From Romanomermis culicivorax (lineage: Eukaryota; Nematoda; Enoplea; Mermithida; Mermithidae), in the NCBI GenBank assembly GCA_963922205.1, contig CAWUHX010000203.1, positions 161,465-225,464 of the forward strand: 64,000 bases of DNA, given 5' to 3'. The notes below the pieces were generated by a model, which was not told where the DNA came from, made no database searches, and saw only the letters and a list, made by a program, of their open reading frames with translations. Position numbers and translations under genes: made by a program. This document shows, in pieces, positions 218 through 57,792 of the stretch. Each line of letters starts with the position of its first letter. Positions within the stretch are counted from its first letter, which is position 1.

Positions 218-1637
218 TGTCACATTAACTGAATTTGGGGACCATGTCACATTAAGTAGATTGGTGATCAGTCACATTGACAGGCAAACCCGTACCATAC
301 TCCATAGGCAATATGGCCATGACACTGTGGGTGACATGCTGTGACCCCGTTGGGTGGCCCCGTTTATGGGTTTCAGTTCGGGAACCCAACCCAGCTGGTA
401 CTACCACAGGTAAACCTATGGTGTACCTCGGCCTTGTCCTGGGGTTAGTGCTGTAGAATAATGGACAACGCGGCCGGGTCAGGGGTGTCAATCCCTAGTC
501 CTCATTCACCCGAATGGGGGACGGTGCCATTCGAAGAATGGCTTACTGTAGGGGACCTGATTGTTAACCTTAATCCCCTTTTTAGGCCCTGACCTTAAGA
601 GTCTGAGGGCTTTCTTAACTGAGGGTACTTCCGAGGGAAAACTAGCTTAGGGGAGACTCCCACAAATATACCCTCAACAACAATAACCCCTGAGAAAACT
701 TACGACACCTCTTCTCAAATTACTCGGGGCTGGGCGACGGGTTCGGGGTCAAACACGGGGTCCTACAGACGGTAATGTGGGAACGAACTCCGAGCGATTC
801 GGCGTGGGGATTCGGCGGCTGCTAAACAGCAGGCGGCGATAACTGACGTTTCCTCGGCGAGGGGCGACGGGTCTCTACAATTAACGGCGACGGGACGGGT
901 TCCTACAGTCGGGTTACTGTAGGCGATGTGTGTATGTGTAGGTCGGGGTACGAATATGTAAATTTATTCGACGATTGCCGCAACGCAGTTGACAACAATA
1001 AAATATAATAAAAAATATCGGCGACGGACGCGGACGAAAAGCTGAACACGAAAAACCAGTTAGGCCCAATAATGAGTGACAAAAGACAAAACATGCCCTT
1101 TTAAAGGGCTCCATAAACTACAGTATGCCCTGGGGGGAGTTAACACTCCCCCAAGCTAACTTCTGCAGCGGAAGTCGTTGCAGAAGATGCCTATGATCAC
1201 ATAGACATTTTCCAGTTCACAAAGTTAAGCATTGGGGCGAGTTTTCACTCTCCATGCTTAACATAGGAACGTCACTAGTGAGAATTTCAACTAGTCGTTT
1301 CACGTTGTGAAATGTCGCTAGTTTTTACTGATAAGAAGTGCATGTTGTGCTCTAATTACAGCAATGAGCTCGGAGAGCTTATCTCTAATGGAAATTCTTG
1401 ACTAGCGGGCACATACCGTAGTCTGCGATTGAAAATAATAAATCGAAACGGAAATAAATGTGCGCAAAAGCAACAGAAATAAACATAAAAAGTACACACA
1501 TAAATTGCATGTAAAAAGTATAAAAACGAAACGCAAAATTGATGTAAATTACTGTAACACAAAACATAACAAAAAACATAATGAGAAATTGTGATGTGAA
1601 TCACGTGACGTTCGACGAAATCTATCGGCACGTGACA
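218..1637 (-). repeat. 3' LTR of copy A
   Basis: It is the left direct repeat, near-identical to 14228-15653. Terminal dinucleotides are TG/CA. On the minus strand it holds an AT-rich TATA-like stretch near 1010-990 and an AATAAA at about 968-963, which could serve as promoter and poly(A) signal. Short ORFs inside it are repeated in the other LTR and look non-coding. Confidence 0.93.
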
Positions 1638-2248
1638 CGGCGGTCCTTCGAAAAAGGGCGTCCTCGTCCTTGTGCTCGTCTGCGAGGGTCAAACATTCAG
1701 GTGATGGTGGCGGCGAGCGGTCGATGGTTCAGTGGTTTTTCGGTATGTTCTGGTTTGTGGAATTGTGTCAATGTTGCGTGGAGTTGCTGACATCCATTCC
1801 AGATGCGTGAAGTTGCTGACGTCATTTGATCCCTTCGGTGAAGTTGCCAATTGTCGGTTGATTTGTGAAATCTGAAATGAGACTAAAAGAAAAATTTTGG
1901 AGGCGAGGTATAGGCTATCGCATGGATGCGCCTGCAATGTGAGGCAATACCCTGGTTTAGATGCATTGATCGCTGCTCATTCTCTTCTTTACACTGCTAT
2001 TCCAGCTTGGAACCGAAGTGGGTATTTTGTGAGGGGCACGGTGGTCCTTCGAAAAAGGACGACCCCGTCCGTAAGTAAAGAAGAGAAGAGCTACTTGATT
2101 ACGGGTCGGCGACCTCTGCATCAAGATGTGGGTCAATGAGATCTTGTGTAAAATCTCTATTTGTTGACGGGATCAACAAAGGTGCCGTCTTGATGACCTG
2201 TGAAGTGGAAGGTATCTCCTCTTCTTCTGTAGGCTGAGCAGGTGACAC
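1638..2248 (-). other. 3' untranslated tail of copy A with polypurine-tract candidate
   Basis: No coding signal lies between the integrase stop and the 3' LTR. Next to the LTR a block containing GGTCCTTCGAAAAAGG (about 1636-1669) recurs at about 2038-2071, so the presumptive polypurine/LTR-edge sequence is present twice. A GTTGCTGACGTCA motif (CRE-like core 1817-1824) matches the core of the leader array at 12.0-12.8 kb. Confidence 0.5.
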
Positions 2249-3067
2249 TTAGCGTCTAAGCTGATTGACATGCACAGTATCCTCTTGATCAGTCTCAAGT
2301 CGAATGGTGACATTAGGATAAGCCACATTCGTGACAAAGTAGGGGCCATCATAAATGGGCAATAATTTGGGCGTTAGACCACGTTTTCCAGTAGTGCGCA
2401 GTTTGAGCACTTAATCCCCAACCTTGTATGAGACATCTCGTGCCATGCGGTCGTAGGACCTAGCATAAGCCACCTGTGATCTCTCAATTCTGCTCTGGAT
2501 CAAGGTCAATGCTTTTGTAAAATGCCGTTTGACCTCCATATCATAAGTAGAAACATCTATGATATGGGCTTGAGGATTGAATGAGAGTGCTGCATCAACA
2601 GGTAGCATGGGAGTACGACCATACATGAGCTCAAAGGGTGAATACCCTGTGGACTCATTCATGCTAATGTTGACGGCGAACACAGAATACGGCAGGTGTT
2701 CATCCCAATCAGTATGACCTTGGTGGACATACATACGTAACCGTGTGGCTAGCGTTTGGTTAGCTCTTTCCACTTCTCCGTTTGTCATGGGATGATAAGC
2801 AGTGGAGTGGATTTTCTTAGTTGAACAAATGGTAGTGATTTCAGTCATCAGTTTGGACGTGAAATCAGTACCACAATCAGACTGAAGAATCTGCGGTGCC
2901 CCATGTCTGCAGACAATTTGAGTAACAAAAAGTCGAGCTATAGTTTGCGCGGTAATGTCCGGAATAGCGAAAGCTTCAACCCATTTAGTAAAGTAGTCTA
3001 TAAAAACTACAATAAATCGGTTTCCGTTTTCACTAGTGGTCATTGGTCCCATACAGTCGACACCGAC
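2249..3067 (-). pseudogene. Integrase core and C-terminal domain, copy A (broken)
   Basis: This is the retroviral-type integrase catalytic domain, which would insert the cDNA into host chromatin. The D,D(35)E core is visible: D in VDCMG at the very start, D in SDCGTDF, and E in GEVERANQ. A stop at 2413-2411 interrupts it just after the core. The same frame then continues through a recognisable GPYFV module (GPY/F domain of gypsy integrases) to a final stop at 2251-2249. The N-terminal HHCC zinc module is absent because of a deletion upstream. Copy B shows the same domain at 56.9-57.8 kb. Confidence 0.85.
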
Positions 3068-6000
3068 TCAATGCTGTTAACCCTCTACTGGTGTACGCAA
3101 CAGGATGGTCGTATCCATTTTCGTCCAACTGGCTTAGAACTGCTCCTATCCCCGAAATACTTGCATCAGTTTGAAGTGTAAAGGATTTCGTAAAGTCCGG
3201 ATGGCGCAGGACAGGAGGGTTCAACAACAGCCTCCGGAGTTCGTCCAACGCCGTCTGCTGAGGTTTTGACCACTGGAAGGTAACTTCCTTCCGTAAGAGC
3301 ATGGTCAGCGGCTCACTGAGCCGAGCGCAACCAGGGATGAAACGCCTATAATAAGACACAAGACCAAGAAAAGACTTGATGTCCTTAGCGTTTTGTGGAA
3401 TGGGTAGATCCTGGACGGCAGCCAATTTGACTCTGTCCGGTTCGAGACCTTTCTGTGAGATGCAGTACCCGAGATATTCTACCTCAGAGTGCGAAAACTT
3501 GCACTTGCTCAGTCTGAGCTTCATTCCACCCTGACGGAGACGCGTGAACACATCCGTCAGGCGCTCAAGCATCTGGGTGTGAGAGTTCCCGAACACCAAG
3601 ATGTCATCGAGATAGGTCAGTGCAGTGCGCCACTGCAGTCCTGTAAGAAGCAGATCCATGAGGCGTTGAAACGTCCCAGGGGCATTGCAGAGACCAAAAG
3701 GCAGATAGTTGAACTCGTAAAGTCCAATAGGTGTATTAAACGCCGTTTTCTCTTTGTCTGCCTCGGCAATAGGTATGGACCAGTAGGCGTTAGCCTGGTC
3801 AAGGGTAGTAAAGTATTTCATACCCTTGAGTGTGTCCAGGATATCATCAATCCGTGGGAGAGGATAAACATCCTTTTTCGTGACCTCGTTAAGACCACGA
3901 AAATCAACACACATCCGGTGTGACCCATTTTTCTTGCGCACCAGAACCGTGTTAGTAGCCCAGGGAGAAGTGCTAGGCCGAATAATACATTTTTCCTGGA
4001 GCGCTTTGACTTCTTGTATGATGAGATCCTTTTCCTTGGGCGCGGTGCGGTAAGGGAAACGGCGGACTGGGCGAGCGTCACCCGTGCTGATCTCATGGTG
4101 CACGAGGTCAGTGGAACCTGTGTCCTTTTCATCAATAGCGTAGAGGTCAGTAAATGTGACCAGCAGATCGAGCAGTGCTGCTTTATCCTGTGAGGAGATA
4201 TCTGAAGATATGACAGCATTGGCCTCGATCCACTTACGGTCAAGAATGGTATCGGACTTGACCGCCGATCCCTGTGAGGTATCAGTATGCATCTGCACAT
4301 GACCGATGGTCGTGTGCGGGTAGAGAACCACTGAGTGTGTACTTGGGTTAACTACCTGCAGGGGTATGCGACCATTGGTCACAGTACTCACAGTACCAGC
4401 AAAGTATACATTGCGTTGGTGACCCAAAAGAGGCTCAGGAAAGAAAGCTACCTCGGGCACAGTTGCATACATTGAAGGTACGGGTGCAGTGAATTGTGTT
4501 AGCGAGTGAGGCTCAAGGACAATCAACTCCTGCAAGGGTAGTGCCCCACGAGCAGAAGGTGGATTGTGGATGAGGCCTTCACACCGGACTCGAAGTTCCT
4601 TGAACTGGAGAAAGGATTTCTCCCAGTTCAAGCTGACACAATTGAAGCGTCCGAGGAAGTTCGTCCCCAAGACTAGTTCAGCCGAACAATTCTCTTGAAC
4701 TTGGACTTGAATCCGTTCAGAGACATCAGCCACTGTCACCGTGACATAGGCAGAGCCTAGCAGTAGAATCGGAGACCCATTGGCTCCTATGGGGCGAGCC
4801 CTAGTCTCTGTGAGTACCAAGTAGGGTAACCGGGCCGCCAGCTTGTGATCCAGGAGTGAGAAAACAGCTCCAGTATCAATTAGAGCTTTGGCTTCTACCC
4901 AATTGTTCAGTAGAACCTTGATATGAGGGGTCCTCATTTCAGTGGGGTAGAAAGCTGATACTACGTGACCTGGGTCAGGCACAGAGTCATCAAAGCTCGA
5001 CTCTGGCGCATTGGTTCGCCTCGGTATGGGTAAACCAGTGCGTCTGAGTAAACCTACCAGAGCATAACCAACCGATGTTTCCGGATTGGTCCTAGGAGTA
5101 GGGTGAACCTGAACAGTGAGTACATGGTCGGACCTTTCTCCTGAGCTCTGAGTGGCTCCTAGTGATTCGACCTCAGCATCAGAGAGTGGTGGCACCTCTA
5201 GTACAGGGGATGCAGGTGCATCAGAATCACTAGGCTCGCGAAAACGGGCTTTCTCAAGTGTAACTGGAGAATTTCCAGGCAGGGGTCGAGGACAGTTTGA
5301 TCCTGACCTAGCCATAAAATGACCACTAGCCCGTCTAGAAGAAGTCCCGCTTCCTCTGGTTGACCCATGGGATGAGGCAATGGAGGAAGCTCGCGAGGGT
5401 GGCCGAGAAAGGGACGAAGTCCTTGATCTTGATCGAGACCCGGACCTGTGGGAGGCCCTTGACAGTGAACGTGTGTTCTCCCACCAGGGTTCGATCTGAT
5501 CAATCTCAGCTGCTGTCAATAGAAGTGGCAGTTCTACCGCATTCAGTCGACAGACATGTTGTTGGTAGTCAAACGTAATATTCTGGAATTGTTCTAAAAA
5601 GTCCAATTCAAGAATCAGATCGACCAGTGCCCAGAAAGGAGACGTAGTCTTACACACATGGAGATGTATATCCACTCGTGTGTGTGGCTGACGGGTTCCA
5701 GGCAACATTATCTCATACGGTCCTGAAAGGAGAGTATGGACAGCTTTACCATTGATACTCATCAATGGATTAAAGTGGTGATGTTGCTGGAAGGCCATCG
5801 CCGCCTTCGGACTTTCTTTGATCAGCGCTTTGTGAAGGCGTTGACTAATGATAGTCCATGGACAACCAGTATCAAGGAAAGTGGGAGTCTCCTTGTGGTC
5901 AACCAGTACGACAAAACACGGAGTGATCCTGTCTAACTGAGTTGGCACATCGTTCTGTACGTAATGAAAACCTACCCAACGCTGAACTTTCCGGAGGAGA

Positions 6001-6659
6001 TTCAGCGGAGAGTATTGGCTAACAAACCGAACCTGTCTTTTCCGCAGGCGGTAAGTGAGGTAATAGGAGATCCCAGCGTAGATGAGAAATCCTGTACGGG
6101 CCAGTACTGCCAGGGCAATGAGTGTGTTAAAGACCAGCTGCACTGGTCCACTCAGGAGAGACTGTAAGCCCTGCATGAGGTTATGCTGCTGACCAGTAAT
6201 CACATGGTTTGCTGCCAGACCAACACCTTCCAGTGAGGCTCTGATGTCAGTTCCTACCCCTGCAACCGCTTGATACAGGGTATCTGGTTGTAGGGATAAA
6301 CCAGCGGTATAATTTACCAACCAGTTCAAGACCGCTTCAATTTGCTCAGTCTTGTAAACATACTGTTTAAAGAAAGCAAAACTTGAAGGGGTCATCACCA
6401 ACTGATCATGAAAGAGCGCAGGAGCGTCAAAGTGAGTGACGTTGAAGCGCTGTTTCCAGAACAGCTCAAGCGGAATGTGGCTCACATGGACCATGCCAGA
6501 TTCAGTAAACCAGCTGGAGCGATTTCGGAAAATCCCTGTAAAGTGGTGGTCACACGGCACCTTTGGGCTGAATTTAGTGAGATCTGGGCCACCGGGGGTG
6601 GCAAAATAAATGGTACCGCCAACCTGTACGGGTAAATACTTGTAACAGGTGTCCCCCAC
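3033..6659 (-). CDS. Env C-terminal part, two retropepsin domains, RT and partial RNase H (copy A)
   Basis: This 1208-residue open stretch continues in frame from the upstream one across a single TGA (6662-6660), so the GTG start is probably not real. In order: the C-terminal glycoprotein ectodomain (1-170), a membrane anchor (~174-200) followed by a basic tail, and retropepsin-like domain 1 with DTG at 263-265. Next come an Arg/Ser-rich linker (~398-450), retropepsin 2 with DTG at 595-597 and LGTNFL near 664-670, and reverse transcriptase (~870-1060; YLDD at 1016-1019, LPFGL near 986). RNase H starts at ~1155 (QTDAS) but is cut short. The sequence departs from gypsy RNase H after residue ~1190, at a deletion joining directly to integrase. 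The enzymes would process the polyprotein and make cDNA. Copy B lacks domain 1. Confidence 0.88.
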
Positions 6660-9245
6660 TCAGTACGAATGGTAGACATAAGTGGTGTTGACCTTTTGAC
6701 ACGGCCATATCGTCAGTGCTTCACCCGTAAATTCCGCCATCAGATCATTTCTTTGAAGAAATGCCCGGGCTCCTAGTGTAGGGTCAAAACGAAGCAACTG
6801 CCAAGTCAGATCAAGGTAGCGTTGAGCGTGCGAGCACAACTCTAGCCACATGAACCGAAAATTGTTAATTTCCGACTCTTTGATCTGCTGAGCCAGGTAG
6901 TTCAGTTTGGCATTGACGGGGTCAGGGACGGAGTCCTTTGCCAATCGGAACAACCTCTGGGTCAAATTTAATCTTCCGTGGATGCGTAGAAGAAGACCCT
7001 GATCCGTTCGCACTGTATTCAACCGGAGGTCAGGACACAGTCGAAACACACGAGAGCTTCCCGGGATCTTCAGGGCGACCTGCAAATCATCGATGATGAT
7101 GTGGTTCCCTGACACAGACGCAGTGTAATTACCTTGTGGCCGATAATGGCACTGTGCTGTAAAGTTTGTGGCAGGCCAAACAATTACCCCGTCTAGAGTA
7201 GTGCATTGACCTGCAGTGGGACTGCATCCACCTACATCTCCTAAGGTACTTAGAGCTGTAGTGCCATGCCACGAAGCGACCTGTCCCTCCTCGATGAAGA
7301 GGTTAGTCACTGTCTTGCAGACGTCATTGCAGCACCACGAGTACATCACCTCCAGTGTTTGGTTAGTGCTATAAAAGCCAGGACGTATTTCCACGAGCTT
7401 TTGTAAACCAAACACCTTTGTGCGATGTGCTAGTGTACAGGCTGCAGGCCCGAGGTGCTGAGTAGTAATGACGTCCGCAGTAATGCCCCTAGAGCCGAAA
7501 AAACCAGTATTTGTGCATACCTTACGATTCCGCAAGGTACATTTCCATGCTTTAGTCGTGATTGGATCAGAAATAGGTACATATACTGTAACATTCATGC
7601 GTCGTGGACTCCACCAAGATTTTGGTGGTTTGCATTCAACTTTTTGAGGTAACTCAAGTGGATGACCGCTTTTTGAAAGACCACAAAATTGGTATTGAGT
7701 AGCATGTGTTGCAGAGCTCACTCCTAAGAACAGTAGTGTCACGAAGGCCCAATTTATTACAAACAAAATATTTACAAACGGTGTCTGCAAATTTACACCA
7801 AAATTTACAGTTTTCACCTGTCGGGCGGCTTCATTCTTCGACGTCGTCATCGTCGGACGACACGGGTTCCTCTCCGGGGAACTCGATGACCAAGCCTCCT
7901 CCGGGGTGGACTTCTCGAAGAACGCCAATCTTCGGGGACCGCGGGACGGTTGCCGTCGGAAATGGCGAGGCCTCGGTGACATTGACGGCGTTGTGAACGG
8001 CGGGCAACGGTTCTCCAAAGGCATTGGCGACCGGTTGCTGCGGCGCAATTGCCGCCAAAGTTTGGGCTCCCGTCCTCGTTGTCGTCGGTGACGTGGCAAC
8101 AACTGCTGTGGGCCGCACGTTGCGACTGGCTTGCTCCACAGCGGGGCGGACGGCGTCCACTGCCGGCGATGATGGTTCACTGTCCAACAGGATCTTGTCC
8201 ACCGGGGTGGCGCCGATAGTTCCGTCGGCGATAAACTTGAGCGCCCATCCAGCGACGTCGGGTCCCAAAATCCGCAACACCGCCGGTGCCGATAGCATGA
8301 CATCGGCGGCCGTAAGCGCCTCAACCTCGAACGGCTCGTTGAGTAGCGCCCAGGGGAGGTGCGGATACTTTTTGACCAAATCGGTTGACCAAACAGCCCG
8401 CATCGCGTCGGTGACGGATGAGGAATCTGTAAACAAGAAATCATTAAAGCCGGTGACTTGTAAGGATATCTAATTTTTGGACCTGAAACTCCAGAAAAAG
8501 AAGGTAGTTTACCTATCAGATTCATTGATTCCAGTTGACCGACAACCTCCAACGCGGAGTCCGTGGGAATTCCAGGCGGCCGTCCCTGGTTGATAGCACG
8601 TGCCGTGGGCGCCTGTGTACCTTCCGTCGGTCGATACGACGCGATTACGCTGACGTCGCCAGTCGTTTTCGGTGTCGCTGACGGGTTTACGTTGACCGGC
8701 GTCGCATATTTCGGTGGTGGCGGCGGAAAAGTCGACAACGGAGTCGCTGAAACCACTGCCGTAGCTGAAAAACCAATACTGATTACACAGACAGGATAAC
8801 ACAGTTGTGAGCAATCCGCCAGGTGTTCAGCCAAAACTTCATCATCCAGATCAAATAGATCTGGGTGAAGAAGACCGTCGGTAATCCTTACAGCATTATT
8901 TTGCCGTGGAGGTGACTGATATTGGTTCCCTGTCCCGTGAGGAGATGGGTTAGCATACCTCCGAAAATTTCCACTTGCCCCCTGAGGAGAATAACCAGAG
9001 TTACCAAAATTAGTCTCACCAGGCAGTGTCGAATTTCGATTGGGGCAAGCCGTTGCCCGGTGCACTCGTAGTTTTCCACAATGCGGGCAGGGTCTGTCGC
9101 ATCGGTCAGTCGGGTGCGCCCTCGTTCGACAAAAATAGCAACGGCTGGCGCCGGTGGCGGAGGCGGTGCTAGGGCCGGTGCTATCGGGATTTTGTGCCCC
9201 GCAAGTAGCGTCGTTGTGGGTGCAGCGTCCATGGTAGGAGCACAT
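6660..9245 (-). CDS. Nucleocapsid zinc knuckles and envelope glycoprotein N-part (copy A)
   Basis: This is an 861-residue open frame. Two CCHC knuckles (residues 36-49, CX2CX4HX4C; 53-67, with one extra residue) mark Gag nucleocapsid. A Pro/Ser-rich stretch follows. Residues ~285-480 look like an out-of-frame reading of a better coding frame (see 7831-8426). From about residue 490 a hydrophobic signal/anchor (plus-strand ~7775-7700) precedes a Cys-rich, N-glycosylatable ectodomain. Blocks shared with copy B include [11 protein letters not shown]-x-D-x-C, TLGD and [11 protein letters not shown]-x-E-L-C helix, a later Trp/Cys segment and then CYKYLPV in the next frame segment resemble class III (gB-like) fusogens; this family call is inference. 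Gag, Env and Pol form one frame, interrupted at the end by TGA. Confidence 0.8.
7831..8426 (-). CDS. Alternative acidic C-terminal exon reached by splicing (copy A)
   Basis: Removing the intron at 8512-8427 joins the upstream frame (after a phase-1 G at 8513) to a different frame, open to a stop at 7833-7831. It encodes about 198 residues with ordinary protein composition: Leu/Ala/Val-rich at first ([15 protein letters not shown]), Pro/Thr/Ala-rich in the middle, and ending in SSDDDDVEE. The overlapping frame is Arg/Ser/Pro-rich as expected of a shadow. I do not recognise a family. Because it ends before Env, splicing would give Gag with this tail and no Env-Pol. The splice sites are predicted by eye only. 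Confidence 0.55.
8427..8512 (-). other. Predicted 86-bp intron in copy A
   Basis: The minus-strand donor is GATAG|GTAAAC and the acceptor is TTGTTTACAG|ATTCC. The interior is pyrimidine-rich and contains no in-frame stop, so the unspliced transcript stays open into Env. The spliced one shifts to the acidic exon. Confidence 0.6.
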
Positions 9246-10171
9246 CTGTAGATGTGCCCCTGATGGGCGATCGCCGGCGGTTTGGACACGCGTCGACGGC
9301 GTGGATGACGGCGTCCAATTTCTCGAAGGCGGCGCCGATTACTGAGCCGTAAGTCGCGCAACATGAGCCGTGAGCCGGGCCACCTCCGATTGTAAATGTC
9401 GAACCTCGTCGGACGGCGTGGCCGACGGACGTTGAGCGGTGCTCCTTTAATTCGACATTGACCTGACGTTGTCGGCGGTCCTGTGTTCTGAAGAGAAAAC
9501 AGCATTAGATGGGGCAGTATACCTAATCTCATCCCGAAAAATCTGTGATTCCGCGTAACAAGCTGCTTTGAGAGTCTCTTCAAGAGTTGTGAACTCCCTG
9601 AACTTAACACTATCTCTAAGGACTGGTCTCAACCCTCTCAGAAAGATAGGTTTAATAATAGAATCCCTAACGTCAGTCGCGAGATCCGGATAAGCCACCC
9701 TGGACAGTCTCTTAAGGTGCTCAAGGTAGACTATCGCGGATTCAGTCGGCTTCTGCAGGCGATCCTGGATCAACTGCTGATGCAGATCTGAATCACGCCC
9801 TACTGGAAAGTCTCTCCTAGAAAAGCTGTGAACTCTTCGTAGCGGGTAGGCTGCGGAGTACCACTGCTAAAGTCCCGGTAGGATGCCAGAGCAGGACCTG
9901 TGAGGCAAGACTCCAAAAACGCGATTTTATATGCATGATCCGCTTCTGTTACCCCTTGAAGTGTAAAGAAGCGGGTCAAGTGGGATATAAAATCCGTTAT
10001 GGACTCACCAAAAGCACCTGAAAAGGCAGGAGGGGCCATGAAGCTGGACACAGGAGGGTGCCTTCTGCCATTCATAGCCTCCAGCTTTTGGTTGAGTGGT
10101 CCAAGGGCATTCTCAAATGCAGCTTGGACCTTATTCTCAATCTGTGAAGGTAAATCAATTTCTGACTTCAT
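9246..10171 (-). pseudogene. Gag capsid region, copy A (frameshifted)
   Basis: Retrotransposon Gag: the first 123 residues (10171-9800) contain the capsid-like segment seen in gypsy gags (FTLQGVTEADHAYKIAFLES, then a Gly-Pro-Ala turn). The frame shifts at about 9803 in a T-run. The next 108 residues (9773-9447) carry the capsid C-terminal part, closely matching copy B (LFLRGL/LFVEGM, then FTTLEE/FTTLKE). In-frame TAA codons occur at 9446-9444 and 9341-9339. Between them lies a heptad-like segment (EVRHLQSEVARLTAHV) that corresponds to a coiled-coil spacer in copy B. The shell protein cannot be made intact from this copy. Confidence 0.8.
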
Positions 10172-12010
10172 AGATGAGAATTCGTCTTCCTGTAAGGTAT
10201 TTAAGACTGATGATCATGCCTGTGAAGTTATTCGATCAAACTGAATAGAGAGGGGCTCACTTGTCTGCTTAAGCTTAGTACTAAGGCGACAGGAACGTCT
10301 AGGTGTCTCTATTTTGTAGAAGTGAAGTAAGAGTTACTTTTGTAGTCGCGTGGCGAGGAAGCGCGGGAAGTACGAGATTGTTTGTGTGACGGCGTGTTGA
10401 GGCTGTAACGCTTGTTCTTTACAATATCTAGCGGCCACTCAGCGATGGGGCTAGAAAAGGACAAGGTTTTAGCTCTCAGAACAGCCAGACGGAGAGATAG
10501 GTTGACTCAGAAGGGAATTTATCTGGTCACCTATGTAGGTAAAGAGGGGATAACCCGAGTGTAAAGAGAAGGAGAAGTATACCCAAACTTTAGAGATGAA
10601 TGGGGCTAGACCCGGTTATTTAAACCAAGAGTATAATACATTTGAAAGGAAAGTGGTGGAACTCCAAACCATAAAATTAAGGAACCGACGTGAGGGCGTA
10701 TGGATAAACCCGCTCAAAAGGGAATTTTATCTGGAGGTTAAGTCCATTGTACTAGTTTACAAACTTTGGGATATGGGAGGGCTCGTAACCCACAAAGTCC
10801 TACTCACCAGGAGTAGGGCATGGAGTAGCTCAAGAATTAATAAGTACTTAAAGTAAACTTAGTGGGTGCTAATAGATAGGGACAAAATTAGTTTACAAAC
10901 CAGACTACGCAAAGGGGATCGCACTATTACGCAATCGGCCTCACTCACTAGGAGCAATTGCGAACTCTGAAAAGTGTGATGACTAGACAGGAGGATCCCG
11001 GGAGGACGTCATTCGCGTGTATGCTACAACCGTGCCCAAAAACGGGAATGCGTGTTTTGAACGGAACGGGAACTCTCCAGGAGTATTATATACAGCTGGG
11101 GGCTGGGTTTCCGTTCACTGAGATGAAGTGAGGATCCCAGGTCACCAGTTGAGATATAAGAGCACCAGGTACCGAGGTGCTATTCTGACACACTCAGTCA
11201 GTAAAAGGGCATGGGGGTCCTTGGCCCAGCTGTGCCAGTGGTGGAGGTGGGGAAATGCAGGCTTCCTCCTATGAATCGAGGCTAGGCTCAACGCATCTTG
11301 AGATCAGGGGTACAGTCTGTCTCGAATAAATGAGTGTAAAGTGAGGGGCTAAGGCCGACTTAGTTGTAATGTGTTTAGGCGCACTCAAACACCTTCGCTT
11401 AGGCGGGCTAGCAGTAATATTATGCTAAGGGACAAACCAATGGAGGTGAACTCAGGATTAAGGGCGACTCTAGTGTGGACATTATTAGGCCAGCTAACGA
11501 AGGCGTTTGAGTGTAAAGAAATGATTACAGAGGGGTCTTTTACAAATTAGGCCCAACCAGTGGCTGTGCTGTAATTCCTGAGGAATTATTCTGGTGGGGA
11601 CACTAAAGAAGATCATAGATGAGAAAGAAATGCGAGAATTTAGATAAGAAATTTACAAGAAGGTTGTCGACCCTTGCAGTTGTTGGACACAGGCAGTACC
11701 GACTGCAAATGCCCAACGGTTGCGTATGTTGAACAACCAACCCAGCTGAGGCCGAGTTAAACCCGTTCGAACCTGCAGTTAAAGCTTAGAAGAGTAGTCA
11801 CGTGCTGATCCATCAGTGCCGCTACCCTTGCGGACAACTTGATCAGTACCACGGACTGAGTGCATCTCGGGTTGCGTGAGCATGTCTACTGATGTTTCCC
11901 TGGCACCAGTAACACACAGACACAACCTTAAAACAAGAGCCGTAGGTGAGAAAGTAATACTACAATCATCACCCAGGACTCAAGTGGCATCTTGGAAACC
12001 CACAGTAACC

Positions 12011-12840
12011 CGGTGCTGACGTCAAAAGATGTGATATACACCACCACACACTCAGTGCTGACCTCAGGTGACTGGGATGTAAGTGCCATAACCTCATATT
12101 GCAGTATGTACGCCAAGAAGTAAGGGCCTACGGCTACAAACTCCTTACGGCAATACAGGGCATCGCCGTTGCTGACGCCAGAATAAGACTGTAAAGTCTT
12201 AATTCCGATACTGGAATAGAGATTTATCATTGTGGACATCAGTAGATAGGGCCCTAGGCCAGCAACCTTGCTACAACAACACGGAGCATCGCCGTTGCTG
12301 ACGTCAAAAGGTAGTAGCTGAGTCTCAGTTATCCTACGACAATGATATGAGATGCAGTTGTTGCAGACGCCAGATGTGCGGTTTGTAAGGCCTCACATCT
12401 ACGAACAACAATACGGTGCATTGTTGTTGCTGACGTCAAGGACTGAAGTCGGAATAACCGACCAATCCTAGTGCAACAACATGAGCCTCTGCTGTTGCAG
12501 ACGTCAGAAAGACAGTGCCATACGGTCACCATCCCACAATAACAACCTGTTACGTTGCCATTGCTGATGTCAGAGGTAGAGCCGGAGGGCCACCCACCCC
12601 TTAAAGCAACAGCAAGGGATGCAGCTGTTGCAGACGTAGGGGGAGGACACGGAGAACCATCAACCCCTGAATGACCACATGTTATGCAGCCATTGCTGAC
12701 GTCAGAAGCATGACCCGGCTAGTCAAACCTCAGTGCAACAGCAGCATGTGAGGTAGTTGCGGACGTCAGAGGTGGGGTCGCACAAGACACAACACCTTTT
12801 AACAACGACCCAATAAGTAGTTGTTGCTGACGTCAGTGGT
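12011..12840 (-). repeat. Tandem ~66-bp array with CRE-like TGACGTCA cores
   Basis: Twelve degenerate GTTGC(T/A)GACGTCA motifs start near 12017, 12059, 12173, 12299, 12364, 12431, 12499, 12565, 12632, 12697, 12761 and 12828. The last nine are 64-68 bp apart. TGACGTCA is the palindromic CREB/ATF-type bZIP site. Several units also place CAACAGC/AACAACA upstream of the complementary GCTGTTG/TGTTGTT, giving 6-9-bp stems (e.g. AACAACAAT...ATTGTTGTT at 12404-12429). It could act as an enhancer or structured leader RNA. Confidence 0.8.
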
Positions 12841-14209
12841 TATGATCGGTAGGATCCTCACCACATGCAACCACCTAGAAACAGAAAAGAAAGAAAAGAA
12901 GAAGAAGACCATGCAGTAGTGGAAAAAATAATAAAAATGACCTACTGAACGGTTGCCAACTATGATGTATGTGTGACCGATAAAGAAAAAGTTTTGTTTT
13001 TGAAAAAAAAAATTTGAATAGAAGTGAAAAAAAAGGAGATGTTGGGTTTGTTTGTTTTTTTTTGGTAGGAAAAAGGATAAATTTTAATTTGTATGTTTAG
13101 AAAGGGGAAAGAAAAGAAAATGGGTTATAAGTTTTATTTGAGTTGATTGTGGAGATAAGAAAATTTATCAGGTGAAAAAGTTATTATAATTGGGTCACAC
13201 TCTACGCATAGAAGACCGAGAAAAGAAAAAGTAAAGTAAATAAAATTAAAATTGAAGTCCCTAGAGATAAGCGATGTGATCTGCTAAGTACGGTGTTATA
13301 CGTGTCAACAGTAAAATTTTGGCTTGTTTGGCCGGAAAAATGAGCAACTTGGCGAGTGCTCAGTGAAGACAAGAAAAATTTTGAAAAAGTGTGTTGACAC
13401 ACATACCGGACACAGACAACAACTCACGACCACACTTGACGTCCAGAATCAAGAGTGGAAGGTGTACTGTACCTCGTGATCGGAGATCCCGAAACCCTCA
13501 GGGGCTGTGAAAACCTCATGGGCTGTGATACGCAAGTACCCGTACCCAGGTATACTGTAGTTAGAGTACGTGCTAATCGCAGTCGTACTGTAACCAAAAA
13601 GGCCTACGGCGCTACAGTAACCTATCCGATCACACGCAGTGAATGGAGGCCCAAATTAGGGGAAAAAATAGAAAGAAAAAGGAAAATGAAAGCTCAGAGG
13701 AGATTTACGGCAGAATACTCGATTTACTCAACTCTGGGAATTTTATGACTCTTGGGGATTAAATCTGGGGAAAAATCGATACCAGGGGATTGAGCAAAGC
13801 TTACGGGAGTTACTAGACTCATAAGGGGTTAATTACGCGCAAGAATCATTAATTTAATCACATGTGGGGCAAATCCCGACCTACAGTAATTAAATTTTAC
13901 TCAAATGCGGTGCTATCTGAGTTGGCGTTAAACTGGAATATAAGGGCCTATTCCAACCTAAAGGGTAGTCTACCTTCTTACGGGCGTATCCACTTATATG
14001 AGGGCAAAAATTTCGTCCTAAGGGTCAGTATCCTACTTTGAATGCGAATCAGCAAACCTGAGAGAGGTTCCCCCACTCAAGTGGCGATTCTCATGATCTG
14101 ATGGAGGTTTCCCCTACTCAAACCGAAAATTTACCTAATTGAAAGAGGTATCTCGCTCAAAAGGTTAAAAGGTTCGCTCCCAAGGACTGTGAAGTCAGAC
14201 TTAAAGGTC

Positions 14210-14227
14210 GATTTTCCAGCCTGGCCA
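14210..14227 (-). other. Candidate primer-binding site, copy A
   Basis: Directly inside the 5' LTR the minus strand reads TGGCCAGGCTGGAAAATC. It begins with TGG, as sites complementary to a tRNA 3' CCA do. The matching tRNA was not identified. Confidence 0.45.
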
Positions 14228-15653
14228 TGTCACATTAACTGAATTTGGGGACCATGTCACATTAAGTAGATTGGTGATCAGTCACATTGACGGGCAAACC
14301 CGTACCATACTCCATAGGCAATATGGCCATGACACTGTGGGTGACATGCTGTGACCCCGTTGGGTGGCCCCGTTTATGGGTTTCAGTTCGGGAACCCAAC
14401 CCAGCTGGTACTACCACAGGTAAACCTATGGTGTACCTCGGCCTTGTCCTGGGGTTAGTGCTGTAGAATAATGGACAACGCGGCCGGGTCGGGGGTGTCA
14501 ATCCCTAGTCCTCATTCACCGGAATGGGGGACGGTGCCATTTGAAGAATGGCTTACTGTAGGGGACCAGATTGTTAACCTAAATCCCCTTTTTAGGCCCT
14601 GACCTTAAGGGTCTGAGGGCTTTCTTAACTGAGGGTACTTCCGAGGGAAAACTAGCTTAGGGGAGACTCCCACAAATATACCCTCAACAACAATAACCCC
14701 TGAGAAGACTTACGACACCTCTTCTCAAATTACTCGGCGCTGGGCGACGGGTTCGGGGTCAAACATGGGGTCCTACGGATGGTAATGTGGGAACGAACTC
14801 CGAGCGATTCGGCGTGGGGATTTGGCGGCTGCTAAACGGCAGGCGGCGATTACTGACGTTTCCTTGGCGAGGGGCGACGGGTCTCTACAATTAACGGCGA
14901 TGGGACGGGTTCCTACGGTCGGGTTACTGTAGGCGATGTGTGTATGTGTAGGTCGGGGTACGAATATGTAAATTTATTCGACGATTGCGGCAACGCAGTT
15001 GACAACAATAAAATATAATAAAAAATATCGGCGACGGACGCGGACGAAAAGCTGAACACGAAAAACCAGTTAGGCCCAATAATGAGTGACAAAAGACAAA
15101 ACATGCCCTTTTAAAGGGCTCTATAAACTACAGTATGCCTTGGGCGGAGTTAACACTCCCCCAAGCTAACTTCTGCAGCGGAAATCGTTGCAGAAGATGC
15201 CTATGATCACATAGACATTTTCCAGTTCACAACGTTAAGCATTGGGGCGAGTTTTCACTCTCCATGCTTAACATAGGAACGTCACTAGTGAGAATTTCAA
15301 CTAGTCGTTTCACGTTGTGAAACGTGGCTAGTTTTTACTGATAAGAAGTGCACGTTGTGCTCTAATTACAGCGATGAGCTCGGAGAGCTTATCTCTAACG
15401 GAAATTCTTGACTAGCGGGCACATACCGTAGTCTACGTGTGCGATTGAAAATAATAAATCGAAACGGAAATAAATGTGTGCAAAAGCAACAGAAATAAAC
15501 ATAAAAAGTACACACATAAATTGCATGTAAAAAGTATAAAAACGAAACGCAAAATTGATGTAAATTACTGTAACACAAAACATAACGAAAAACATAATGA
15601 GAAATTGTGATGTGAATCACGTGACGTTCGACGAAATCCGTCGGCACGTGACA
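14228..15653 (-). repeat. 5' LTR of copy A
   Basis: It is the right direct repeat, partner of 218-1637, with the same TG/CA ends. It is followed at 15654-15657 by the ATAC target duplication. It has a 6-bp insertion near 15436-15441 relative to the left copy. Confidence 0.93.
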
Positions 15654-15657
15654 ATAC

Positions 15658-49400: not shown

Positions 49401-49404
49401 GTTC

Positions 49405-50295
49405 TCTAACATACCTGCTAATGCAGTACTGTAAATATATAGCATACTGTATGTGATAGTCATTTATTAAATAATATTTCATTTTCGCAATTTATCATCT
49501 CAAGGGTGTCTGGGATTCACACCCAAACATTCCTGTAAAAATCATGTGAAGTACTTTATTTTTATCTGTTCACACCCCAGTAGCCCGATTAAGATGCCCC
49601 AATTAATTTGCACAAACGGCAGCTGGTCCCCTAGAACCTACACTAAACCACACATTCCACGGCTACCGTAATCCCCCATAAAAATCGTAAACAACACCTG
49701 CACACAGTAAAATAAGTAAAAGCCCTGCCCGACAGTAGTCTCAAGTGCAACGGTAGTGACGGTCCCACAAAACATGTGTACACAGAGAAACAGATAGGGG
49801 AAGCATGCACAGAAGCACAGAGGTGTGGCTAAGCCCACCCTAGGAAGAAAGCAAGACACGAAAAGCATGCGGTACTAGAAAAGCGTTAAAGGGCGTGACT
49901 AAGTAAGCAAGAATAGTAAAGCAGGAAGCGAGGATTGGCGGAAGAAGATGGACAGAAGCACGACCTCCAGCGACGCCCAGGGAGTGGCCAAAAACGTTGT
50001 ATTTAAAGAGAAGCAAAGCGTGATTTTGTGATTATTGTTGTAATTCTCCGTTTTTCAACCCGGGCCCATTTCATTTGCAAGCGTTTTGTATTGCGAGTGA
50101 GCATCCTTTTATTCGGAAGCAGTTAAGCCGTTGTTGTAACTCGCCGCGTTCCCCGTTTCTTGTGTCGACGTCTCAAAGCAGCCGTCGATTATTATTACCA
50201 GTATCCCCCCGTATTACACGCCCCGCACCCCTTTTTGTCTGCCGTAATGTCCGTAATTGGATAAAGTAAAGTGCTTCACAAATCTGGTTGTTACA
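49405..50295 (+). repeat. 5' LTR of copy B
   Basis: It begins TCTAAC where the 3' copy has TGTAAC, so the first TG is mutated. It ends GTTGTTACA. A TATTTAAAG TATA-like motif lies near 50000. Confidence 0.92.
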
Positions 50296-50538
50296 TATTT
50301 TGGTGACCATACGGTACCATTAACCACTGGAACTCCCTGCCCCAATTAGGTGCATTCTTATTTGGGCATACCGAAGCATTAGATAATACAGTAGTAATCA
50401 TTTACTACAGTAAGACAAATATTCATAGAAAGCAAACTGGAAATCCCCTCCAACGAAACATTAAGCGAAACATTTGTACGAATACAGCGTGAAGCAAAAA
50501 TTGAAGCATTTAAGCAGAAATCCCAGCGTAAACCAAGA
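50296..50538 (+). other. Short leader of copy B with primer-binding-site candidate
   Basis: TTTTGGTGACCATACGGTAC starts 3 bp after the LTR. Its TGG is compatible with priming by a tRNA 3' CCA, but the tRNA was not identified. Unlike copy A, the leader is only 243 bp. Confidence 0.5.
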
Positions 50539-50933
50539 ATGACCCACCAAATGCAAGATCATTTAGGAGAAATCTTTAGAGAACAGATAAACGATTTATT
50601 TTCTGAACATTTTCGTACTCTACGCACACAATTGAATCAGAATACAGTAAACCCTACCCTAATTGACGATCAAAGAACAGCAAACATTCGTAATAACATG
50701 GCGAATAATTTTTACGCGAAACCTACAGTATTCACGGGCGGGGTGACCCAACATTATGGTGAATGGAACAAACGTTTAGAACAATTCATGGCACTCCAAG
50801 GCATGAAAGATACAGACGTACAGTTAAAGTTGGCATGTTTAGAGATTCATTTAGGAGGAGCCGCCTTAGCAAAATTCAAAGGTTAGCCAATTCCGAAAAC
50901 CCTCCCAACACATAGGAGCAGTATAAAATCGCA
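50539..50933 (+). pseudogene. Gag N-terminal/capsid region, copy B (broken)
   Basis: An ATG-started frame of 115 residues includes FTGGVTQHYGEWNKRLEQFM and LACLEIHLGGAALAKF, the gypsy-type capsid segment also seen in copy A. A one-base shift occurs at about 50883. In the continuing frame a TAG stands at 50913-50915 before the capsid C-terminal part resumes. Confidence 0.8.
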
Positions 50934-53312
50934 TTGCAGGCCTTTTTCCCAAACAATCGAGATAATGAGCTACATCAACAATTTTTACACGAGAGAAAAC
51001 AAAAACGATCAGAAACAGTAACTGAATTCTTGTTTGATCTAGAACACCTCGCAACCCTCGCCTACCCTAACTTTAACACAGACGCACGAGAAATGATCAT
51101 AAAACCCCTTTTTGTAGAAGGCATGCAAAACAAAATCAGGGAAGCAATTAAGTATAGACGGTTTACGACCCTGAAAGAAATGTCAGAGGAAGCAGCTTAC
51201 ATTGAACAGCAAATCTTTAGAAATGAGCTAAAGTCCAACACCCTTCCATTTATACCCCCAAAACCCGAACCCATCTTTTCCCTAACCAAAAATACAGACC
51301 AACAGGACCTTTCGCATCAATTAGAACAACAAGTAAAAGATTTACAGTTGCAGATCAAGCAAAAATCCCAACCTCCACAACAGAGAAACTACAACAGTTT
51401 CAGTAACAACACTTTCGGCAGGAATAATGCTTACAGGAACAACACTACCCCTAGGCAACCCACATGCTTTCAGTGTGGCCAACGCGGACATGTAGCTCAC
51501 AATTGTAAAGCAGTAGGCACCCAGAAATCATGTGAAATTTGTTTTCATAATAATCACCGTATGTGTGATTGTAAAAGCCGATGCATCCACTGCTCCCAAA
51601 CAGGACATAGATCTGATAACTGCCTTTCGAAACCCTACTCAAATTTTCAATGTTTTCTATGCAAGCAGAGAGGTCATACAAGTAGGTACTGTCCAAATCA
51701 AAAAAGTCGTAATATTCAAAATTGCATTGAGTACAGGCAACCCCAATCCCTAATGGACATTGATGACCCTGCATTCTACTCAACGTTACCCACCATAACT
51801 AACGGCCCTCAGACTACTTTAGGAACTATAATGCCCACCACTCACTGCTGTAGTCAGGAGGAGTACGTCCTCGACCTAGACATACCGGATTGGTGCGCCA
51901 TGTCACCACCCCCCACGCCCGAAGCCACCAAAATCGTAAAATTGCTGCCCACCATCCCAGCAGACTGCAAAATCCCCCAAAAACAGGACACCAAGTCGCC
52001 CACCGCCCCCGAAACACCATCGAAAAATGGCCGTAACCTCTTGTCTCTTTTACATGGCCTCACCCCCAAACCCTACCAATTCCGCCCCCGCCAAACACTA
52101 TTACCGACCCCCACAAGTAAGCAAATCCAAACCCCATCTCATGACTCAACTTCTAAAGTTTCACAGACTGTTCAGATTACAAACCGGCCACCCCCTCAGC
52201 TCAAAACCGTAAAACACCAACAGCCATGCCAAACCGGCCAGAACAAAAACACACAGTGCCCCGCCGCCTCCAATAACACATTGTATTGGCCTATGTTTTG
52301 TATATTTCTTTGTATAATAATCCCCACATCGTGTAGTGCCCAATTCCAGATCTGTGGAACTTCATTGAGCGGTCACTCAGTCAGCATACCAAAACTTGTA
52401 TCATGTATGCCCCCTTCCACAGTAGACAAACCAGTACAGACATTCAGAAAAATCTATATCCCCTCCACTAGGCCTCACATAACAGATGCATACAAATGCA
52501 GTGTTCGCAAATGGAAAATTTGTACTAATACTGGATTTTTTGGCTTAAAAGGTATTGTTTTCGACCAAACCGAAATGCAAAATCTCACCCCACATGTTTG
52601 TAAGGCAATAGTTATAGACAAAGAACACAACGGTCAAAAATTATACGAAACTCAACCAGGATTTTGGTCAACAAACAACTCCCTAAGCGTAGAATACACA
52701 TGGTGTTGCACAGACCACTGTACATCAGTCACTAATATCATCATAGAAATAGGACAAATAGCACCTTGGAATGGAAAATCAATGACAGGTACATTAGGTG
52801 ACCTGGGGTCATGCAAACCAACATCAGGCCATTGTGTAACGACCGACGGGTCCATTATCTGGAATGAAACAGCATTTGAAAACTTATGCCCTTTCGAATA
52901 CAAAAACACACATCCCATAAAATTGACGCAAACCCACATGATAATAGAAGAGCTACAAGGTGCATTCTCCATCAAAAATACACTCTTTTCGAACCCCAAC
53001 TGCCCAGAAATCCAAGACAGTGTCCTAACCGAACAGGGCATTGTTGTACAATTAGACAAAAGCACCGCACATCGTAATGCATTTTTAACCCCAAAAATCA
53101 AAGAAACACATACTACACTCTACGACTTTGAGGATTTTGAACCCATTAACGCAAAACTAAACTATCTAGCAGACAAAACCCAGGAATTCGAAATCCAAAA
53201 TTTCAAAAACATGTGGAGTGAATTATGCAGACAGGCACAGCTTCACCTTGATCTAGTATGGCAAATTTTGCACCTTGATGCAACCCTTGGGGCACGTGCA
53301 TTCCTACAATGA
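50934..53312 (+). CDS. Gag C-terminus, four zinc knuckles and envelope N-part (copy B)
   Basis: This is an open stretch of 792 residues. It contains the capsid C-terminal domain (1-90), a Gln-rich coiled-coil spacer (~125-145), and four CCHC knuckles (~178-255), beginning [14 protein letters not shown], all CX2CX4HX4C. A Pro/Thr-rich linker leads to a hydrophobic signal ([14 protein letters not shown], ~454-467) and then the Cys-rich ectodomain, with the same [11 protein letters not shown]-x-D-x-C, TLGD and TLGARAFLQ blocks as copy A. Nucleocapsid would bind RNA. The glycoprotein would sit in membranes. The frame ends at TGA 53310-53312, where copy A stays open. The apparent start is not a real one; translation would come from gag. 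Confidence 0.85.
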
Positions 53313-54536
53313 ACGGATATAATAGCAGAATTCACAGTAGATGCCCTCACAGTCTGGCCCTGTAAACAGGTAAACGCATCTAAAGTCTTTTACAACCATA
53401 AAATCAACCAGACATGCTACAAACTTTTACCTATTCTGGTAGGAACGGAACTCATGTTTTCAAACCCCGGAGGCAACGATTTGACCCCTTTCTCACAAAC
53501 CGTTGACTGCCATCACATGTATGTAGCCCTTTACAGACAAAATAATACATGGGTCAGTGAAACAGGATCCCCGCATGTCACAAATCTACCATTAGAAATC
53601 AGCTGGAACCAAAATTTCTCCCTTTTCCATTTTAACACACCCGCAATTTTTCATGATCAACTCGCAACAATTTCGACCAACTTACTCTTCTTAAAGCAAT
53701 ACATCTACAAAACCCACACACTTGAAAATGTTGTTAAAAAACTTGTCAACTACACTGCCCAAATGTCTCTTAATTCAGATACAGTTTAAAATATGATCTC
53801 AGGCAGTGGCCAAGCAATCGGAAATACCCTCTCTGGAGCCGGTCAAGGCATAGAACATGTAATAACCGGTACTACCCAAAGCCTCACAGACCGATTAAAT
53901 AATTTACTCAAAGGACACCTGCAAATCATTATCAATCTAGCCGTTATTACTGTAGTCATTGCAGGCGTCTTTTACTCTTTTCTCATTCTTCGAAAATATT
54001 TCCCTTTCCCGAAGCAGCAGGTTACAAATGAACATGCGTACGAAGTACCATCACACAACAGAAGTTCACATGAGACCATTCCCCCATCATTCGGCCATGC
54101 TCTCTTAGAATTAGCTAATCATTGCGGGGCCCAAACGCAGCAGAAATATGTTCTTGTCGACATTGACACTCCCAGAACCCCTGCAATCGAACTCATTAAC
54201 CAAATCCACCAATCTGGATCAAATAAGCTACCCCAGAATGTATCTGAGAAACATACCCCTCACATTCCAATCACACTCAACGGCAAGCTAATTACAAAAG
54301 GCATGATTGACACTGGTGCCGTATACTCACTCATTGATTCGCCAATCTCTCAAATCCTACAGCTAGACATGAAACCCCCGCTAGTCCAAGCCAAAGCAGC
54401 AAATAACCTTCCGATTCACTTTGTAGGAACAACTTTTGTTACAGTAACAGCCCAAACTATACAGGAAACAATAATGGTCCATGTCCAAAAAGATTGCACA
54501 GCAGATGTCCTCCTAGGCAAAAATTTTCTCAGTTGA
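53313..54536 (+). CDS. Envelope C-part, membrane anchor and protease (copy B)
   Basis: Same frame as the preceding stretch. The ectodomain continues (TCYKLLPILVG, FSNPGGNDL, all with counterparts in copy A) to a TAA at 53787-53789. The frame then resumes with a Gly-rich segment and a hydrophobic anchor (~53930-54010) followed by a basic cytoplasmic tail. A single retropepsin follows, with DTG at 54309-54317 and LLGKNFL near the end. A TGA at 54534-54536 stands just after. There is no Arg/Ser-rich linker and no second protease domain, in contrast to copy A. Confidence 0.82.
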
Positions 54537-57761: not shown

Positions 57762-57779
57762 AGGAGGACGTTCAACTCC

Positions 57780-57792
57780 GGAAGGAGGGAAA
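57780..57792 (+). other. Polypurine tract, copy B
   Basis: GGAAGGAGGGAAA directly precedes the 3' LTR, the standard plus-strand primer site. Confidence 0.85.

What the first reader, a model, noticed from the sequence alone, without database searches (positions are those of the whole stretch)
6030..9245. Envelope glycoprotein encoded between Gag and protease (Gag-Env-Pol order)
In copy A a signal-bearing, Cys-rich ectodomain with a C-terminal membrane anchor follows the zinc knuckles and precedes the DTG protease in the same frame. Retroviruses and errantiviruses place env after pol. An env embedded before pol would be made at Gag-Pol stoichiometry and would thread the polyprotein through the membrane.
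Basis: partly seen in the sequence, partly recalled or inferred. Interest (0 to 1): 0.88.

Follow-up and report, generated by a model that had tools for sequence, protein, structure and literature searches.

The report
Nematode retroelement with envelope inside Gag-Pol
A mosquito-parasitic nematode carries many families of retrovirus-like elements whose envelope protein is encoded in the middle of one long Gag-Envelope-Pol frame, an unusual gene order that may mean the envelope is made as part of a single large protein.

Summary
Confirmed. Copy A (minus strand) and the diverged copy B (plus strand) both read Gag (CCHC knuckles), signal peptide, Cys-rich ectodomain, membrane anchor, aspartic protease, RT, RNase H, integrase, between LTRs with 4-bp target-site duplications. 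The ectodomain is a class III fusogen by Pfam (Monjiviricetes_fusion) and by predicted fold (herpesvirus gB). Both window copies are broken, but the host genome (Romanomermis culicivorax, by assembly statistics) holds uninterrupted copies: one frame of 3,018 codons with gag, env and integrase in 13 family-A copies, and of 2,486 codons around env in 23 of 123 scored family-B copies. Nine more divergent families, picked mostly for long frames, show the same order. Env is under strong purifying selection (dN/dS 0.11 between subfamilies). In family A and its sister an 86-nt GT-AG stretch before env would, if spliced, shift Gag into a second, selected frame that stops just before env; unspliced RNA reads on into Env-Pol. 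This suggests a polyprotein threaded through the ER membrane, with splicing setting the Gag to Gag-Env-Pol ratio. Order, frames and selection are shown; translation, cleavage and splicing are inferred. Closest known: Atlas virus (one Gag-Pol-Env polyprotein, class II Env, BEL/Pao), Anakin, Cer1.

The parts
218..15653 (-). Element A, LTR retroelement; LTRs 14228-15653 (5') and 218-1637 (3'), 97.3% identical; TSD GTAT at 214-217 and 15654-15657
9450..10213 (-). Gag capsid region of copy A, in two frames here (copy is broken); Met matching the first Met of the intact frame at 10171
   Evidence: (Ty3_capsid only 0.03-0.07, below cutoff)
9045..9140 (-). two CCHC-type zinc knuckles
8427..8512 (-). 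candidate 86-nt intron (GTAAAC...TTTACAG); GT, AG and length kept in the sister subfamily; length = 2 mod 3
7831..8426 (-). X exon: second frame under selection, ends in a stop just before the env signal; overlaps the main frame
7719..7775 (-). hydrophobic signal segment of Env (internal in the main frame)
6138..7700 (-). Env ectodomain, class III type, 16 conserved Cys columns; broken here by a stop at 6660-6662
6081..6137 (-). Env membrane anchor
5511..5984 (-). first aspartic-protease-like domain (DTG 5853-5879), weak match below cutoff
4653..4943 (-). aspartic protease (DTG 4857-4883), clear match
3033..4400 (-). reverse transcriptase and start of RNase H; best solved relative Ty3 RT
2411..3052 (-). 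integrase core, shifted frame in this copy
49405..58683 (+). Element B; LTRs 49405-50295 and 57793-58683, 96.4% identical over 889 aligned positions; TSD GTTC at 49401-49404 and 58684-58687
50398..51692 (+). Gag of copy B with four CCHC-like motifs (51465-51692); N-terminal part in another frame here
52296..53981 (+). Env of copy B: signal 52296-52340, ectodomain, anchor 53925-53981; stops at 53310-53312 and 53787-53789
54243..57761 (+). Protease, RT, RNase H, integrase of copy B; stops at 54534-54536 and 56928-56930; frame ends 31 nt before the 3' LTR, so no room for env after pol

Best explanation
These are Ty3/Gypsy LTR retroelements of Romanomermis culicivorax whose single long open reading frame is Gag-Env-PR-RT-RH-IN (shown in the sequence). 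Env is a class III fusogen of the mononega/jingchuvirus type (profile and fold shown; viral origin inferred). Most likely unspliced RNA is translated as one polyprotein: Gag in the cytosol, an internal signal peptide enters the ER translocon, signal peptidase frees Gag, the ectodomain folds in the lumen, the anchor stops transfer, and protease-Pol emerges in the cytosol and is released by the element's own protease (all inferred). In family A and its sister, splicing of an 86-nt intron would join Gag to a selected second frame that stops before env, giving Gag-X without Env-Pol and so setting the ratio (splicing inferred; frame-specific selection shown).
For: Order and frame. Uninterrupted frames: gag, env and integrase pieces all in a 3,018-codon frame in 13 copies and in frames of 3,017, 3,014, 2,978 and 2,911 codons in 4 more, spacing 0 mod 3 in 17 of 17; family B 2,486 codons from gag to integrase end in 2 of 2 copies checked at both ends; sister subfamily with 3,092-codon frames, gag and env checked in C209 and C48, integrase phase in C209. 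Nine divergent families: knuckles, env, anchor and YLDD in order in 9 of 9. Fusogen. Selection: env dN/dS 0.110, gag 0.144; X zone 0.201 in X frame, 0.789 in main frame. Main frame open across X in only 0.7% and 1.8% of 2,000 synonymous shuffles. In C124 the nearest main-frame ATG is about 670 nt before the signal segment. Outside relatives: P0001 Gag-Env one frame, P0002 Env-PR-RT one frame. Four of four copies dated are young: LTR identity 98.9-100%, matching TSDs.
Against: No RNA or protein data: a spliced env mRNA is not excluded. P0002 begins with a Met directly at its signal peptide, window copy A has a main-frame ATG about 75 nt before the signal, and C209 has main-frame Mets some 200-250 nt before it, so internal or separate Env starts are possible in some copies. 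C124 has an acceptor-like TTTGCAG before the signal, not conserved in C209. The 86-nt stretch itself is no better conserved than its flanks (58 of 86 identical against 52 and 58); only its ends, length and the frame switch support it. Family B shows no X frame of comparable length (alternative frames of 95 codons or fewer in the piece scanned). Fold match: low TM-scores over the whole model (0.25 / 0.35-0.42) and rmsd 7-8. The N-terminal env ORF of copy B has no Pfam env hit of its own.
Confidence: 0.67

Rival explanations
1. The gene order is as described, but Env is made from a spliced subgenomic mRNA (as in errantiviruses and Cer1's CERV), and the continuous frame matters little for Env.
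For: Errantivirus env exons are spliced to upstream exons (PMC12992720, passages); Cer1 has a polyprotein frame plus a spliced mRNA (PMC10309623, passages). P0002 starts at its signal peptide; window copy A has an ATG about 75 nt before the signal; acceptor-like TTTGCAG before the signal in C124.
Against: The main frame is kept open through the X zone beyond synonymous-shuffle expectation in both subfamilies; main-frame constraint runs without a break from Env into the start of the first protease-like domain; the acceptor-like word is not conserved in C209.
Confidence: 0.25
2. Gag reaches the X frame by a programmed -1 frameshift rather than by splicing.
For: X lies in the -1 frame of Gag, and the switch of selected frame falls within one to two 120-nt steps.
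Against: A GT-AG pair of conserved position and length (86 nt) joins exactly these frames in both subfamilies. No slippery-site scan was run.
Confidence: 0.12
3. The middle segment is a non-membrane Gag extension or a chance open frame in dead copies.
For: Both window copies are broken.
Against: Class III profile and fold, signal, anchor, 16 conserved Cys columns, dN/dS 0.11, and many uninterrupted copies.
Confidence: 0.02
4. Assembly or nesting artefact: an env-bearing element inserted into another between gag and pol.
For: Retroelements often nest (general knowledge).
Against: Same order in two diverged window elements with their own LTRs and TSDs, in nine other families, and split over P0001 and P0002 from other contigs.
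Confidence: 0.01

Closest known systems
Atlas virus (hookworm Ancylostoma ceylanicum endogenous belpaovirus; PMC9094657, passages seen)
   Same: Nematode LTR retroelement; one stop-free polyprotein (2,828 residues) that includes a viral-type Env; identical LTRs
   Different: Order Gag-Pol-Env with Env last; class II phlebovirus-like Env; BEL/Pao. Here Env lies before protease, is class III type, and RT is Ty3-like
Anakin (mosquito BEL/Pao with chuvirus glycoprotein; PMC7642597, passages seen)
   Same: LTR retroelement that captured a mononega/jingchuvirus-type glycoprotein
   Different: BEL/Pao. The passages put the env-like proteins of Roo, Tas and Cer7 downstream of the polyprotein; where the gene lies in Anakin was not in the passages seen. 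A later survey (PMC10084718, passages) found no clear capture by Gypsy
Errantivirus / insect endogenous retroviruses (PMC12992720, passages seen)
   Same: Metaviridae with an env
   Different: Separate third ORF downstream of gag and pol, baculovirus F-type Env, spliced env mRNA
Cer1 (C. elegans Ty3/Gypsy; PMC10309623, passages seen)
   Same: Nematode Ty3/Gypsy with no stop between gag and pol, plus a spliced mRNA that uses another frame for one exon
   Different: Extra ORF lies after pol and encodes part of CERV, which does not resemble retroviral Env
Alphavirus/flavivirus structural polyproteins (recalled, no call)
   Same: Cytosolic capsid followed by an internal signal and a membrane-threaded glycoprotein in one polyprotein
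   Different: Unrelated viruses without reverse transcription

Membership tests
Metaviridae (Ty3/Gypsy) | RT most like Ty3 | tested here: met
   best solved relative Ty3 RT 4ol8, E 8.2e-76, then Ty3 Gag-Pol chain 7q5b; no tree and no BEL/Pao RT comparison was made
Metaviridae (Ty3/Gypsy) | PR-RT-RH-IN order in Pol | tested here: met
   the rve hit of copy B is below cutoff (0.0045), its zinc-binding integrase domain is clear (1.2e-20)
Metaviridae (Ty3/Gypsy) | LTRs TG..CA with short TSD | tested here: met
   4-bp TSD in A, B, C8, C12, C124, C172; the 5' LTR of copy B starts TCT
Metaviridae (Ty3/Gypsy) | Ty3-type capsid | tested here: inconclusive
   PF19259 E 0.034 and 0.069, below cutoff
Metaviridae (Ty3/Gypsy) | tRNA primer binding site | not tested
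   no scan was made
Errantivirus | env as separate ORF after pol | tested here: not met
   B pol frame ends 31 nt before the LTR; env is before PR
Errantivirus | baculovirus F-type Env | tested here: not met
   Pfam profile is Monjiviricetes_fusion, no F-type family listed; fold best matched by gB
Atlas-type belpaovirus | Env at the C-terminus of the polyprotein | tested here: not met
Class III fusogen (Monjiviricetes / herpes gB type) | profile match above cutoff | tested here: met
   PF24664 1.3e-7 (window A N-part), 7.6e-10 (window B middle part), 1.7e-16 (C124), 4.1e-14 (C209); window A C-part 6.4e-5 is below cutoff and window B N-part has no hit
Class III fusogen (Monjiviricetes / herpes gB type) | gB-like fold | tested here: met
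Class III fusogen (Monjiviricetes / herpes gB type) | membrane fusion activity | not testable with these tools
   needs a bench assay

The most novel reading that the evidence does not exclude
A whole radiation of envelope-bearing Ty3/Gypsy elements in one nematode builds its envelope as an internal, membrane-threaded domain of a single Gag-Env-Pol polyprotein, in the manner of an alphavirus structural polyprotein, and in one branch sets the Gag to Gag-Env-Pol ratio by splicing or retaining an 86-nt intron whose downstream stretch is coded in two frames.
Probability: 0.45. Interest if true: 0.92.

Novelty: new variant of a known kind. Interest (0 to 1): 0.82.

Why it matters
Where the papers seen here state a position, retroviruses and env-bearing LTR elements carry env after pol, and errantiviruses make it from its own spliced mRNA. 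Here env sits before protease in one frame, and four of four uninterrupted copies dated are young. That breaks a standard rule of retroelement organisation, offers a testable polyprotein route to an enveloped particle, and shows a Ty3/Gypsy lineage with a class III type envelope. It also makes the control of the Gag, Env and Pol ratio testable with RNA data from the worm. The host is a mosquito parasite of the mermithid family, employed in biological control (PMC10879605, passages).

Tried and rejected
Non-membrane Gag extension: rejected by profile, fold, signal, anchor and Cys pattern. Chance or nesting artefact: rejected by copies A and B, genome copies and P0001/P0002. Viral contigs: one scan with the A env piece found nothing. 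Protein search with P0001's env region returned only P0001; only the 7,986 candidates sharing most words were scored, and even P0002 was not listed. PDB sequence search of P0002 gave RT-type hits and weak ZorA matches around the anchor, none to a fusogen; the fold search was needed. An overlapping alt1 frame over the nucleocapsid was considered and rejected: substitutions there peak at main codon position 3. The model of X was too poor to use (mean pLDDT 38.6). No exogenous viral source was identified at sequence level: the eight protein hits are unnamed apart from P0008 (Romanomermis) and P0003 (labelled a gammaproteobacterial MAG, probably misassigned). Weak points: the first protease-like domain of copy A is below Pfam cutoff and related to the second only at E 0.008 over 49 residues. 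The nine families were picked from 150 scored matches mostly for long frames, so they are not a random sample; C23 and C372 lack a signal peak above the threshold used (1.79 over 15 residues at best), and C372's protease was not tested by Pfam.
Full report
OBSERVATION. The window holds two LTR elements. Copy A is on the minus strand at 218-15653 with LTRs 97.3% identical over 1,426 columns and TSD GTAT; copy B is on the plus strand at 49405-58683 with LTRs 96.4% identical over 889 positions and TSD GTTC. Copy A reads, in one frame, two CCHC knuckles, a hydrophobic signal (7775-7719), a Cys-rich ectodomain, an anchor (6137-6081), a weak protease-like domain (DTG 5879-5853), an SR-rich linker, a clear protease (DTG 4883-4857) and RT. 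It is broken: the gag N-part and integrase lie in shifted frames and an in-frame stop sits at 6660-6662. Copy B has the same order, with four CCHC-like motifs, the gag N-part in another frame and four in-frame stops between 53310 and 56930. The two copies are collinear: gag pieces 33 and 45%, env pieces 36-50%, protease 41%, RT 50%, integrase pieces 51-63% identical. In copy B the pol frame ends at 57761 and the 3' LTR starts at 57793, so nothing the size of env can follow pol.

THE HOST AND THE UNINTERRUPTED COPIES. The window's genome G000 has 359,112,060 bases in 595 contigs, the figures given for R. culicivorax v2 (359.1 Mb, 595 scaffolds; PMC10879605, passages), and P0008 from that species matches it at 98% over residues 6-100. 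The A env piece had 105 scored matches of 3,630 candidates, the gag piece 150 of 2,555, the integrase piece 150 of 7,083. In 13 copies all three pieces lie in an open frame of 3,018 codons; in four more they lie in frames of 3,017, 3,014, 2,978 and 2,911 codons; the spacing is 0 mod 3 in 17 of 17. Many other copies have shorter frames or stops inside the env piece. The frame of C124 runs from 762368 to 771421, first Met at codon 55. A sister subfamily has 3,092-codon frames in 8 of the 150 scored integrase matches; gag and env were checked in two of these, C209 and C48, and the integrase phase in C209. Family B: 23 of 123 scored env matches (of 3,491 candidates) lie in frames of exactly 2,486 codons and 67 of 123 in frames of 2,461 or more; in the two checked at both ends the frame runs from gag to the end of integrase. 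Nine more divergent families, chosen from 150 scored P0008 matches (of 2,506 candidates) mostly for long frames, show knuckles, env, anchor and YLDD in that order in 9 of 9, a strong signal peak in 7 of 9, and a protease after env by DTG/DSG motif in 5 of 9 and by Pfam in C51, C23 and C32; C372 was not tested by Pfam. In those nine about 500 nt between the two pieces was not fetched; continuity there rests on the tool's frame length. LTR pairs of four uninterrupted copies are 100%, 99.8%, 99.3% and 98.9% identical with matching 4-bp TSDs, so these four inserted recently.

SELECTION AND A SECOND FRAME. Between C124 and the sister C209, dN/dS is 0.144 for gag (548 codons) and 0.110 for env (603 codons). 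Substitutions peak at main codon position 3 throughout gag and env and into the start of the first protease-like domain, except in the windows from C124:764168 to 764887, where they peak at position 2, the third position of another frame. That frame, X, is open for 219 codons in C124 and 255 in C209, 61% identical (132 of 216) against 43.5% (93 of 214) for the main frame over the same stretch, and ends in a stop just before the env signal; its dN/dS is 0.201 against 0.789 in the main frame. The main frame nevertheless stays open across X: of 2,000 synonymous shuffles of X codons, 0.7% (C124) and 1.8% (C209) leave it open; conversely, shuffling main-frame codons leaves X open in 3.9% and 0.65%. 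Just upstream lies an 86-nt stretch, GTAAAC...TTACAG in C124, also 86 nt with GT and AG in C209 (window 8512-8427); 86 is 2 mod 3, which joins Gag exactly to X. Its inside is no more conserved than the flanks, 58 of 86 against 52 and 58. In the one family-B copy scanned no alternative frame over 95 codons was seen there.

MECHANISM. Shown: order, open frames, predicted fold, selection, recent insertion of four copies. Inferred: unspliced RNA gives Gag-Env-Pol; the internal signal sends the ectodomain into the ER; signal peptidase separates Gag (likely after THA in C124 and APA in C209, read by eye, no predictor was run); the anchor leaves protease and Pol in the cytosol, where protease can free them; splicing of the 86-nt stretch gives Gag-X only. 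Gag and Pol both end up on the cytosolic side, so the arrangement is workable. In C124 the nearest main-frame Met before the signal is at 764258, some 670 nt upstream, which argues against simple internal initiation there; window copy A (an ATG about 75 nt before the signal), P0002 and C209 (Mets 200-250 nt before) do have nearer Mets, so it is not excluded everywhere.

COMPARISON. Atlas virus is the nearest precedent for one polyprotein with Env, but its order is Gag-Pol-Env, its Env class II and its RT BEL/Pao (PMC9094657, passages). Anakin is the precedent for a chuvirus-type glycoprotein in an LTR element (PMC7642597, passages); a later survey reports one endogenization event in Nematoda with two EVEs and no clear capture by Gypsy (PMC10084718, passages). 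Drosophila errantiviruses keep env downstream of pol and splice it (PMC12992720, passages); in rotifer elements the env-like ORF3 lies after pol (PMC5408684, passages); Troyka has no envelope (PMC12440569, abstract and passages). Cer1 combines a polyprotein frame with a spliced mRNA that uses another frame (PMC10309623, passages). 'Gag-env-pol' with 'retrotransposon' gave 0 papers. In the other searches no listed title or abstract start reported this order; only the listed rows were seen, out of up to 14,303 matching papers. The library holds open-licence papers only, so prior description elsewhere, for example in repeat databases, is possible.

VERDICT. Real, well supported and unusual: a new variant of env-bearing Ty3/Gypsy element, with expression still to be tested.

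Noticed in passing
G000 C52 element, loci L044 (790284) and L045 (793164): Retropepsin domains lie on both sides of env (Pfam 2e-7 before, 2.6e-8 after), a possible trace of how env was inserted.
   Followed up: partly
window 5511-5984 and 4653-4943 (minus): Copy A has a weak protease-like domain with DTG after the anchor in addition to the normal protease; the sister subfamily pieces reach into the same region.
   Followed up: partly
L047 464-1150 (C51): Protease of one family has DCG where others have DTG, in a long open frame.
   Followed up: no
window 10214-14227 (minus): About 4 kb between the 5' LTR and the gag region in family A; nothing was assigned there.
   Followed up: no
G000 C180 and C283: Evenly spaced env matches (about 8.4 and 8.6 kb apart, three each) suggest tandem arrays of elements.
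   Followed up: no
G000 C203:158985-159623 and 163878-164516: The integrase piece of copy A occurs twice, 100% identical, 4.9 kb apart; one copy lies just outside the window.
   Followed up: no
P0003: An env fragment touching gB, filed under a gammaproteobacterial MAG, probably eukaryotic contamination.
   Followed up: no
window 35200-37544 (plus): Part of a host catalase gene (Pfam Catalase 1.1e-44 in 35200-36045; a weak Catalase-rel match, 0.19, in 37056-37541).
   Followed up: no
window 44348-45400 (minus): DDE_3-type transposase, with Tc-type helix-turn-helix matches below cutoff.
   Followed up: no
window 58684-58922: Imperfect 31-nt tandem repeats beginning at the 3' end of element B.
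   Followed up: no
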